Source: an uncultured Chthonomonas sp. (GTDB taxonomy: Bacteria; Armatimonadota; Chthonomonadetes; Chthonomonadales; Chthonomonadaceae). From it: a DNA stretch of 47,811 bases. The position numbers and the translations under genes are program-made. The DNA lies in NCBI GenBank assembly GCA_903859705.1, contig CAIONQ010000010.1, positions 1-47,811 on the forward strand, read 5' to 3'. Of this stretch, positions 3,669 through 6,236 are shown piece after piece (the first letter of the stretch is position 1; the number at the start of each line of letters is the position of its first letter). A model generated the notes under the pieces. It did no database searches. It saw only the letters and a program-made list of their open reading frames with translations, and was not told where the DNA came from.

Positions 3669-4250
3669 TCAGGCCGGGTTGCCGAGGCCTTCCAGCTTAA
3701 TCAGCAGTTCGGCAGCATCTTCTGCAGATATATTTCCCTGCTGAAGCATCTGCAGCACAATAACCCTGGCGGCGGTGTTATCCACCTTTGGGGGTGGCGG
3801 CAGCGCTGCCACTGGCACCGGTGGCGGTGGAGGGGGTGGTGACACCCTATCTTTCACAGCCTGAGTTGCCTCTTGAGTTTTGCGACGGACGATGTGCTTA
3901 AAGCCATCCCACGACTCCTGAGCAGCAGTTCGCGCAGACTCTTTGATTGCTGTTTTGGCAATGCCCCAGAACAGTGGGAAGAGATTTGTTGGCACCTGAA
4001 TTGCGTAGGTTGAGCCATCTCCTCGCTGCATCTGCACCTCCATCATGGCATCCTTGGAGTTGCCCGTGCCCGGAGTTGCTGCCTGTACTGGCCCGGTGAT
4101 GGAGGCTTCTTTTGCTTTTGAGGCCTCCTGAACAACCGGCCGTGGGGTAGGCGGATCTGAAAGGGCTACTATAATGCCGGCGGCCTCTTCTGCGTTGAGC
4201 GCACCAGATACAACCAGATCCAGTATGCGTTGTTTTTCTGCATCGTTCAT
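3669..4250 (-). CDS. Small protein with SHOCT-like helical module at both ends
   Basis: 193 residues, family not named with certainty. Residues 7-30 (RILDLVVSGALNAEEAAG...) and 163-186 (VIVLQMLQQGNISAEDAAEL) are two copies of the short bihelical module found at the N-terminus of many DUF4097 proteins. Between them are a linker, a hydrophobic or amphipathic helix (LFPLFWGIAKTAIKESARTA, about 90-110) and a run of seven prolines (138-144). No signal peptide. Last gene of a three-gene operon, 39 bp after the DUF4097 gene. ATG 4250 is preferred because GGGAGGT lies 9-10 nt upstream; an in-frame GTG at 4259 touches that Shine-Dalgarno. Probably a membrane-associated partner or adaptor; no enzymatic motif is visible. 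Confidence 0.75.
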   Translation of the reverse strand: MNDAEKQRILDLVVSGALNAEEAAGIIVALSDPPTPRPVVQEASKAKEASITGPVQAATPGTGNSKDAMMEVQMQRGDGSTYAIQVPTNLFPLFWGIAKTAIKESARTAAQESWDGFKHIVRRKTQEATQAVKDRVSPPPPPPPVPVAALPPPPKVDNTAARVIVLQMLQQGNISAEDAAELLIKLEGLGNPA

Positions 4251-4289
4251 GGGCGGCACACCTCCCGCATCTCCCTGATTTTAGCGCTT

Positions 4290-5708
4290 TCAGCTAACCT
4301 GTGATACATGCGAGTTGCCAGAGATTGTTTGAACATTTACTGTTCCGGCCCCGGTGCCAATCTGGCCCTGCCATAGCGTTTCGGCGGCAATAACGCTGGA
4401 TGCATCGTGATCGCAGCGCAGATCACCCGATGTGGTGCTCATCGATAGCCGAGCATTGGTATCGACTGGCAGCCCGAGTTCTACATCGCCAGAAACGGTG
4501 CTAATTTGAACGGTGCCACTGAAGGTTGCGTGCAGCTTAAGCTCCACATTACCGCTAACAGTTTGCGCCTGAACCCGGTTGGCAACCAGTTCATCGGCGT
4601 GGATATCGCCAGAAACGGCTTTCAGCGCGATGTTGCCAGAAGCACCGGTTAGCGAAGCATCTCCGCTTACCGATTCTACAACGACATCAACAGGTGCAGC
4701 AGCGCCCACTCCGCTTACATTCACATCGCCAGAGACAGATTTGCACTCTACGCGCCCACCTTCGATATCGGTGGCTGTTACATCACCACTTGCACTGTTG
4801 GCAATAAGACCGCGTTGAATGCTGGCGGCATCGATATCGCCACTTTCTGTTGCGGCGGTTACCGAGCCCAGAATGGTGCGCAGAGTGATATCGCCAGAGG
4901 CAGTTTCGCACCGGACATCTCCGCCAACGTTCTCGATTGCGATATCGCCAGACGTGGTAGAGGTCTCTACACGGCTCTCGAAATCTGTAACCGAGATATC
5001 TCCGTAGCGGGTGCTTATGCGAACCTGCGCATTGGCAGGGGCGGTGAGTTCAATATCCAGAACCCCTTCACGGAAAGATTCTGGCGCTACGGCCTTAACA
5101 TCCAGGCGCCCATCGGTGGCGAAAACATTCAGCACGATGGTTTGAAGCAGCTCATCGAGAGCCGGCTCCTCACCCCATACCTCTTTGCTTATCCTGAGGA
5201 TGGCTGTTTGGCCCTCGCCGGGCTTTACGCGCACGTCTCCCAGTGGGTTATCTATCAGAATTGACGCGCCTGGTTGCAGGTGGAATTCCTGTACGGTTGC
5301 TTCGGACTTAACGGAGAGACCGCCGATGTTAGAGGGGCGGACATCTGGCCCATCCGACCAGGTTTTTACTCTGGCACTGAGGCTGGCGCTCCAGCTGGCA
5401 CTTGCCTTGCTGGCATTGCGCAGTTGCGCCTGCACGCGGGCAACAATCTTATCTGGCTGAACCCTACTAACAGCTTTAGAGATGCGCTCGCCGAGGTGAT
5501 CAAAGTCGAATTCTATTTTCTGATTTCTAACTTTGTCTTTGAGATCGTCCATAAAAGGCTTCTCTACGGGTGGTGGCTCCGGGGCGGGCTCCGGCTGCGG
5601 GGGCGGCGCAGGCTCCCGATTGAGAGCCGCAATTAGGGTAGCCGCCTGCTCGGGGCTCAGTTTGCCTTCCTGCAGCATTTGCAGGACCTTCATCACACTA
5701 TCGTCCAT
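4290..5708 (-). CDS. DUF4097-family beta-strand repeat protein
   Basis: 472 residues. Residues 6-29 (MKVLQMLQEGKLSPEQAATL) are a SHOCT-like module, followed by a Pro/Glu/Ala linker (31-50). A charged segment follows, then from about 150 to the end a long series of short beta repeats with the signature (V/T)SGD(V/I/A), giving a right-handed solenoid typical of DUF4097 (YvlB/LiaX-like) proteins. In Firmicutes such proteins belong to cell-envelope stress responses; that role is only an analogy here. No export signal is seen. ATG at 5708 is preferred (AGGG 8 nt upstream) over an ATG at 5732. It sits 56 bp behind the DUF2089 gene, which probably regulates it. Confidence 0.85.
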   Translation of the reverse strand: MDDSVMKVLQMLQEGKLSPEQAATLIAALNREPAPPPQPEPAPEPPPVEKPFMDDLKDKVRNQKIEFDFDHLGERISKAVSRVQPDKIVARVQAQLRNASKASASWSASLSARVKTWSDGPDVRPSNIGGLSVKSEATVQEFHLQPGASILIDNPLGDVRVKPGEGQTAILRISKEVWGEEPALDELLQTIVLNVFATDGRLDVKAVAPESFREGVLDIELTAPANAQVRISTRYGDISVTDFESRVETSTTSGDIAIENVGGDVRCETASGDITLRTILGSVTAATESGDIDAASIQRGLIANSASGDVTATDIEGGRVECKSVSGDVNVSGVGAAAPVDVVVESVSGDASLTGASGNIALKAVSGDIHADELVANRVQAQTVSGNVELKLHATFSGTVQISTVSGDVELGLPVDTNARLSMSTTSGDLRCDHDASSVIAAETLWQGQIGTGAGTVNVQTISGNSHVSQVS

Positions 5709-5764
5709 ACCTTTACCCTGCCTTATCATCACTTAGCGTGATCAAAACCAGACATGTACTGCTG

Positions 5765-6157
5765 TTACGGAATTTCTCGGAGCGCTGCGGCGGCCTCATC
5801 GGCACCGATTTCGCCCCTTGCAAGCTGTTCCAGAATCTCGGACCTTCGCTGTGCTCCGACGGCTGCAGTTGGTGCCGGGAATTCAACCTGTTCTGGCTGA
5901 AAATCCAGGGCTGCGACTGCGGCACTCAGGCGGTTACGCACCGTTGGGTAAGAGAGGTTGAGTTCCTTTTCTACCCTGCTCAGGTTGCCCTCGCAGCGCA
6001 GAAACAGCTCTATGAATGACAAATGTTCCGGTGCGAGCCTGCAGAACCTACATGTTTCGAAAGATCCATGAATGCTTGTTCTACAGCTGCCACAGTGCAG
6101 TTCCGAAATTCCGAGACTGCCCTCACACACGGGACAACGGGAAAGTGATTTCGCCAT
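5765..6157 (-). CDS. DUF2089 zinc-ribbon/HTH regulator
   Basis: 130 residues. Two CxxC pairs (C8/C11, C22/C25) form a zinc ribbon, and a further C36-x2-C39 is present. They are followed by the DUF2089 hallmark LFLRCEGNLSRVEKELNLSY (51-70) and PTVRNRL, a helix-turn-helix resembling sigma-4 regions. The C-terminus (107-128, SEILEQLARGEIGADEAAAA) is a third instance of the helical module found in the next two genes. DUF2089 proteins are often encoded beside DUF4097 genes and are thought to be their transcriptional regulators. A strong GAGGAGG lies 5 nt before the ATG. First gene of the operon. Confidence 0.88.
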   Translation of the reverse strand: MAKSLSRCPVCEGSLGISELHCGSCRTSIHGSFETCRFCRLAPEHLSFIELFLRCEGNLSRVEKELNLSYPTVRNRLSAAVAALDFQPEQVEFPAPTAAVGAQRRSEILEQLARGEIGADEAAAALREIP

Positions 6158-6236
6158 AGCAACCTCCTCAACTCCCCGATAATTCTCAGTACGATGTCAT
6201 TTTACAATACGTTTCAGATAAATACATAAATATTTC

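What the first reader, a model, noticed from the sequence alone, without database searches (positions are those of the whole stretch)
3669..6157. One ~23-residue helical module repeated in every protein of a three-gene operon
The DUF2089 regulator C-terminus (EILEQLARGEIGADEAA), the DUF4097 N-terminus (KVLQMLQEGKLSPEQAA) and both ends of the small protein (RILDLVVSGALNAEEAA and VLQMLQQGNISAEDAA) share the pattern h-L-x2-h-x2-G-x-h-s-x-E-x-A-A. Four copies in one operon argue for homotypic or heterotypic assembly: regulator, solenoid and a two-headed linker held together by the same contact. The linker has a hydrophobic helix that could tether the complex to a membrane. A regulator that physically contacts its own operon products would be a sensing circuit of a kind I do not know described for this family.
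Basis: partly seen in the sequence, partly recalled or inferred. Interest (0 to 1): 0.72.

Follow-up and report, generated by a model that had tools for sequence, protein, structure and literature searches.

The report
Shared-module envelope-stress operon with two-headed linker
Three neighbouring bacterial genes (a DNA-binding regulator, a β-helix protein and a small linker) really do share one tiny helical-hairpin module, present four times here and nowhere else significantly in the genome; the module and the regulator/β-helix pairing are already known, while the two-headed linker and the stress-type promoter in front of the operon are new details pointing to a membrane-stress response.

Summary
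The repeated module is Pfam PF22746 (SHOCT-like): Toastrack/DUF4097 N-terminus, both ends of the small protein, and (sub-threshold singly, significant as a family profile) the DUF2089 C-terminus. In the 6.2-Mb genome the only hits with E<0.1 are these four. All 17 genomes of the family (Chthonomonadaceae, Armatimonadota) keep the trio; the two-headed protein occurs nowhere else among 255 genomes of the phylum. Across 69 DUF2089 loci, nearly all from other phyla, every one has another module-bearing gene downstream, usually a one-headed protein (module + β-hairpin/helix core) of which ours is probably a divergent two-headed version. DUF2089 + Toastrack + SHOCT-like as an envelope-stress context is published (Ravi et al. 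2024), so the idea is not new. New here: the two-headed variant; a TGAAAC-N16/17-CGTA ECF-sigma promoter before the operon, matching that before an ECF sigma gene in 16/17 relatives; and opposite charges around the module's conserved glycine in DUF2089 (R-G-E) versus partners (E-G-K), suggesting, not proving, heterotypic docking. No transmembrane tether in the linker. Direct contact remains untested: no multimer prediction was available and the co-evolution test was not specific.

The parts
6190..6216 (-). ECF-sigma-type promoter TGAAAC-N17-CGTA, about 33 nt upstream of the DUF2089 ATG
   Evidence: Only match in the window; 6/17 orthologous operons have an exact match vs 0.007 expected from shuffles; same motif before the ECF sigma gene in 16/17 genomes
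5765..6157 (-). DUF2089 regulator: zinc ribbon (res. 8-39), HTH (41-86), SHOCT-like tail
   Evidence: PF22747 E 7e-12, PF09862 E 1.6e-20
5768..5854 (-). Module 1: C-terminal SHOCT-like module of DUF2089 (R-G-E type; R114-G115-E116)
   Evidence: PF22746 15.9 bits alone; family profile vs the other modules E 4.8e-7 to 4.1e-11
4290..5732 (-). Toastrack (DUF4097) beta-helix protein; likely start ATG at 5708
   Evidence: PF13349 E 1.4e-32
5610..5696 (-). Module 2: N-terminal SHOCT-like module of the Toastrack protein (E-G-K type; E22-G23-K24)
   Evidence: PF22746 E 7.8e-9, 39.6 bits
3669..4259 (-). Two-headed small protein; likely start ATG at 4250
   Evidence: PF22746 twice, E 1.1e-12; family-specific profile A1
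4155..4238 (-). Module 3: N-terminal head of the two-headed protein
   Evidence: PF22746 25.4 bits; predicted helical hairpin, pLDDT about 90
3990..4046 (-). Beta-hairpin core with the family motif RPDGSxYxxxVP (RGDG here)
   Evidence: Predicted E72-78, E84-90; conserved in the relatives; in register with the core of the widespread one-headed protein, weak E 0.01-0.085
3843..3989 (-). Long helix of the linker, not a TM helix
   Evidence: H91-139; max 19-residue hydropathy 0.93 around its start
3687..3758 (-). Module 4: C-terminal head of the two-headed protein
   Evidence: PF22746 27.8 bits; helical hairpin, pLDDT about 95

Best explanation
The operon is a cytoplasmic, membrane-proximal envelope-stress module of the DUF2089/Toastrack kind. 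An ECF sigma factor turns it on under envelope stress (inferred from a shared promoter). The DUF2089 regulator, the Toastrack scaffold and the two-headed linker are brought together by their SHOCT-like hairpins: the DUF2089 tail (R-G-E around the conserved glycine) docks onto partner modules of opposite polarity (E-G-K in Toastrack-N and in one-headed partners), and the linker with two partner-type heads can bridge two module-bearing proteins. The complex would hold or present the regulator until stress on the Toastrack/adaptor side changes its DNA binding, comparable in logic to LiaX/LiaF-LiaRS or PspA-PspF control. Shown: shared modules, operon conservation, promoter identity, charge polarity. 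Inferred: physical docking, bridging, the stress signal, direction of control.
For: Modules homologous and, in the whole genome, significant only in this operon. Trio kept in 17/17 family genomes. 67/69 DUF2089 loci, nearly all from other phyla, carry the module and 69/69 have another module gene downstream. Promoter TGAAAC-N16/17-CGTA before the operon in 6/17 genomes exactly (0.007 expected) and before an ECF sigma operon in 16/17, where spacers differ and only the boxes persist; in the window's genome that sigma operon also encodes a DUF4097 protein. B. subtilis yvlABCD (YvlB = SHOCT-like + Toastrack) and pspA are in the sigmaW regulon (PMC3498285), and YvlB interacts with PspA, LiaH and its own operon's proteins in two-hybrid assays (PMC9239133). 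Charge polarity at G-1/G+1: 56 of 63 polar DUF2089 modules are R/K-G-E/D-like while 50 of 52 polar small-protein modules are the reverse (loci share ancestry). One relative (G013) has an extra gene between DUF2089 and Toastrack joining the module to a hydrophobic helix.
Against: No direct contact evidence: no multimer tool; in the single-chain model the two heads have no fixed arrangement (pTM 0.26). Module-module distance correlation given the rest of the proteins (r 0.20, p 0.005) is no stronger than a control pair (r 0.18, p 0.003), so it is not specific. Classical SHOCT did not oligomerise a reporter (PMC3581485). Two relatives outside the family (G044, G045) have a DUF2089 that lacks the module. 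Only about half the family's operons have a recognisable ECF promoter; several have a sigma70-like one instead (read by eye). The motif was first seen by eye in these same sequences before it was tested, and it is not enriched genome-wide (27 vs 43 for the reversed control).
Confidence: 0.5

Rival explanations
1. The SHOCT-like modules do not bind each other; each independently anchors its protein at the inner face of the membrane (or to one shared membrane partner), so the proteins are co-localised rather than docked.
For: This is what Ravi et al. 2024 propose for SHOCT-like domains; G013 has a module fused to a hydrophobic helix; classical SHOCT did not self-associate; amphipathic hairpins fit a surface role.
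Against: Systematic opposite charges in regulator and partner modules are not needed for a common membrane anchor; acid-rich E-G-K modules should be poor binders of anionic lipid (inference).
Confidence: 0.25
2. Shared ancestry only: the module spread by duplication within the operon and each copy serves its own protein (homodimerisation of the regulator, of Toastrack, of the linker) without cross-talk.
For: The two heads are most like each other (hhalign E 2e-14), as for an intragenic duplication; no co-variation signal specific to modules.
Against: The modules stay together in one operon and nowhere else significantly in the genome, and a module partner accompanies DUF2089 in 69/69 loci, which shared descent alone would not maintain.
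Confidence: 0.2
3. The pattern is generic helix-turn-helix sequence similarity without homology.
For: Short, Ala/Glu/Leu-rich segments; the DUF2089 copy alone is below Pfam's cut-off.
Against: Profile-profile E-values down to 2e-14, at most 1 of 5000 shuffles as good, and genome-wide restriction to this operon.
Confidence: 0.02

Closest known systems
DUF2089-Toastrack-SHOCT-like gene context (Ravi et al. 2024, mSystems, PMC11237479)
   Same: DUF2089 read as zinc ribbon + HTH + SHOCT-like; Toastrack with SHOCT-like N-terminus; module at N- or C-termini; proposed Lia-like membrane-stress signalling to transcription
   Different: No PspC found in any of the 17 family genomes; third protein is two-headed; an ECF-type promoter in front; mutual docking proposed in addition to membrane anchoring
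One-headed 'SHOCT-like + VNVNIP core' protein downstream of DUF2089 in Bacillota/Chloroflexota
   Same: N-terminal module, then a beta-hairpin followed directly by a helix, same gene neighbourhood
   Different: Ours lacks the second beta pair (GKIVDVED..VEIxVE), has a 49-residue helix and a second module; core homology only suggestive (E 0.01-0.085)
B. subtilis YvlB (yvlABCD) and enterococcal LiaX
   Same: SHOCT-like/helical N-terminus + Toastrack; YvlB under ECF sigmaW (PMC3498285), networked with Psp/Lia proteins (PMC9239133)
   Different: LiaX is surface-exposed and tied to LiaFSR; no DUF2089 in the yvlABCD operon; NCBIfam LiaX score 31 vs cut-off 350
Classical SHOCT domain (PMC3581485)
   Same: About 30-residue helical hairpin on many proteins
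   Different: Classical SHOCT not detected by Pfam in these proteins; only the SHOCT-like PF22746 model matches

Membership tests
PF22746 SHOCT-like domain | Score over the curated cut-off (27 bits) | tested here: met
   Met for Toastrack-N (39.6) and the C-head (27.8); whole two-headed protein 47.5; N-head alone 25.4 and DUF2089-C 17.3 are below, the latter supported by profile-profile comparison
DUF2089 family | Zinc ribbon PF22747 and HTH PF09862 in order, SHOCT-like tail | tested here: met
   tail
Toastrack (DUF4097) | PF13349 over cut-off | tested here: met
   113.5 bits
DUF2089-Toastrack envelope-stress context (Ravi et al.) | DUF2089 and Toastrack adjacent, with a SHOCT-like partner | tested here: met
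DUF2089-Toastrack envelope-stress context (Ravi et al.) | Accompanying membrane component (LiaI-LiaF-TM or PspC) | tested here: not met
   No PspC in 17 genomes; no LiaF-TM seen among the neighbours scanned with Pfam; genome-wide LiaF-TM not tested
DUF2089-Toastrack envelope-stress context (Ravi et al.) | Induction by envelope stress and transcriptional output | not testable with these tools
   Only indirect: ECF-type promoter
One-headed SHOCT-like/VNVNIP protein family | Homologous core after the N-terminal module | tested here: inconclusive
   hhalign E 0.01 / 0.085 in register (reversed control 0.1); same predicted order helix-helix-strand-strand-helix
One-headed SHOCT-like/VNVNIP protein family | C-terminal GKIVDVED...VEIxVE beta pair | tested here: not met
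   Absent from all 16 aligned two-headed proteins
LiaX | NCBIfam NF038025 cut-off 350 bits | tested here: not met
   31 bits

The most novel reading that the evidence does not exclude
The module carries a charge-polarity docking code: R-G-E tails (DUF2089, and the C-termini of some Chloroflexota Toastracks) pair with E-G-K modules of co-operonic partners, so that a transcription factor is reversibly tethered to the Toastrack scaffold and, in Chthonomonadaceae, bridged by a two-headed adaptor, all fed by an ECF sigma factor: a phosphorelay-free, adaptor-based envelope-stress circuit.
Probability: 0.3. Interest if true: 0.65.

Novelty: new variant of a known kind. Interest (0 to 1): 0.42.

Why it matters
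DUF2089 regulators occur in many phyla with no known signal or partner. If their tail docks onto modules of neighbouring proteins, the partner is named by the operon itself, and a charge-swap experiment becomes a direct test of how this one-step stress circuit works. The ECF promoter ties the operon to envelope stress independently of domain guilt-by-association and gives a condition in which to look.

Tried and rejected
Membrane tether in the linker: rejected, hydropathy too low and helix charged. Solved structures as templates: none convincing by sequence and no confident fold match for the one-headed protein or the two-headed protein. A first co-evolution run was mis-registered; re-anchored and de-replicated, the signal is not specific. 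Core homology to the one-headed family: suggestive only. PspA as a member of the same ECF regulon: exact site upstream in only 2/17, near-site in 3 more, none in the window's genome. ECF site upstream of DUF2089 in other loci, mostly other phyla: 0/74, so the promoter link is specific to this family.

Full report
Observation. The three ORFs lie where stated. Pfam names the repeated element PF22746, a SHOCT-like domain named after DUF2089 C-termini. It is clear on the Toastrack/DUF4097 N-terminus and on both ends of the small protein, and sub-threshold on the DUF2089 tail. With one sequence set per module from 16-17 relatives, all six pairwise profile comparisons are significant and in the same register (hhalign E 4.8e-7 to 2.2e-14; column-shuffle z 6 to 17). 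In the whole 6.2-Mb genome the only hits with E below 0.1 are these four. Four copies in one operon is therefore real and specific.

Conservation. The genome belongs to Chthonomonadaceae (Armatimonadota): contigs of its family members reappear under that name, e.g. L110. All 17 family genomes hold the DUF2089-Toastrack-two-headed trio (in G003 it is split over two contigs, and in G001 the two-headed gene is cut by a contig end). A profile of the two-headed protein finds full-length matches in that family only, among 255 genomes of the phylum, while module-bearing proteins occur in 161 of the 255.

Wider context. A scan with DUF2089 alone, not chosen for context, returned 80 loci, mostly from Bacillota and Chloroflexota. 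Of 69 with at least 2 kb downstream, 67 DUF2089 proteins carry the module, all 69 have another module gene downstream, 65 have a module gene not recognised as Toastrack (mostly a small protein) and 30 a recognisable Toastrack. So the most constant partner of DUF2089 is a small module protein rather than Toastrack. That protein has one N-terminal module, a beta-hairpin (KVNVNIP), helices and a second beta pair. The two-headed protein has an N-terminal module, a beta-hairpin (RPDGSxYxxxVP), a 49-residue helix, and a second module. The hairpins align in register but weakly (E 0.01 to 0.085; reversed control 0.1). I read ours as a divergent two-headed form of the widespread protein, not proven. 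One other genome (G184) has a tandem two-module version with the VNVNIP core after DUF2089 and Toastrack.

Promoter. Upstream of DUF2089 the window has TGAAAC-N17-CGTA at 6216-6190(-), the only match in the window, with a good Shine-Dalgarno before the ATG. This is the recognition sequence of sigmaW-type ECF sigma factors (own knowledge). Exact matches occur in 6 of 17 family operons against 0.007 expected from shuffles; 9 of 17 with a relaxed -10. Of the 27 exact matches in the genome one lies directly before an ECF sigma gene; its orthologues have the exact motif in 16 of 17 genomes with changed spacer sequence, which is what autoregulation would preserve. In the window's genome that sigma operon also encodes a DUF4097 protein, and DUF4097 hits lie on the same contig within a few kb of the sigma gene in several relatives. 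In B. subtilis the Toastrack operon yvlABCD and pspA belong to the sigmaW regulon (PMC3498285). Several family operons instead show a sigma70-like TTGAC...TATNAT (read by eye), so ECF control is not universal.

Contact. Direct evidence is missing: no multimer prediction could be run. Indirectly, residues flanking the conserved glycine have opposite charge in regulator and partner modules: among unique modules, 56 DUF2089 tails are positive-then-negative and 7 the reverse, 2 small-protein modules are positive-then-negative and 50 the reverse (Fisher p 2e-22, not corrected for ancestry). In Chthonomonadaceae, Toastrack-N is E-G-K-like in 12/16; DUF2089-C is R-G-E-like in 8/17 and has the +1 acid in 15/17. 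Four Chloroflexota Toastracks carry an R-G-E module at their C-terminus, so chain position is an alternative correlate; but the C-head of the two-headed protein is of the partner type (+1 basic in 14/16), so position alone does not explain it. The positions are at helix ends, where capping preferences also act. A distance-based co-evolution test was not specific. Classical SHOCT did not oligomerise a reporter (PMC3581485), and Ravi et al. favour membrane anchoring; this remains the main rival.

Membrane. The linker has no transmembrane helix. In G013, however, an extra small gene between DUF2089 and Toastrack joins a module to a hydrophobic helix (L048 3156-3611), a natural hint that module-bearing proteins are meant to meet at the membrane. 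PspA is present in all 17 genomes, PspC in none.

Verdict. A real, conserved, non-random feature; module, regulator and Toastrack association already described; the two-headed adaptor, the ECF promoter link and the charge polarity are additions. New variant of a known kind; interest moderate.

Noticed in passing
G000:C142:15000-21500 (L207): ECF sigma gene with its own TGAAAC-N17-CGTA promoter, followed by a probable anti-sigma gene, a third gene and a secreted DUF4097 lipoprotein; promoter exact in 16/17 family genomes.
   Followed up: yes
L048:3156-3611 (+) (G013): Extra small gene between DUF2089 and Toastrack: SHOCT-like module, Cys pair, strongly hydrophobic helix and basic tail.
   Followed up: partly
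L083, L085, L089 (family f2, same order): SHOCT-like module fused to an acyl-carrier-protein-like domain (weak PP-binding hit for L083), on a different contig from the Toastrack gene.
   Followed up: no
L099:2878-4770 (G052): SHOCT-like module fused to a long pentapeptide-repeat protein directly downstream of DUF2089, in the slot usually taken by Toastrack.
   Followed up: no
L091:2995-3882 and L092 (G045, G044): DUF2089 truncated before its SHOCT-like tail while the next gene keeps a module: a natural tail-less regulator.
   Followed up: no
L148, L150, L158, L168: Chloroflexota Toastracks with the module at the C-terminus and of the R-G-E charge type normally seen in DUF2089.
   Followed up: partly
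upstream of pspA in G006, G007, G010-G012 (L240, L249, L247, L243, L246): ECF-like sites upstream of PspA in some family genomes but not in the window's genome.
   Followed up: partly
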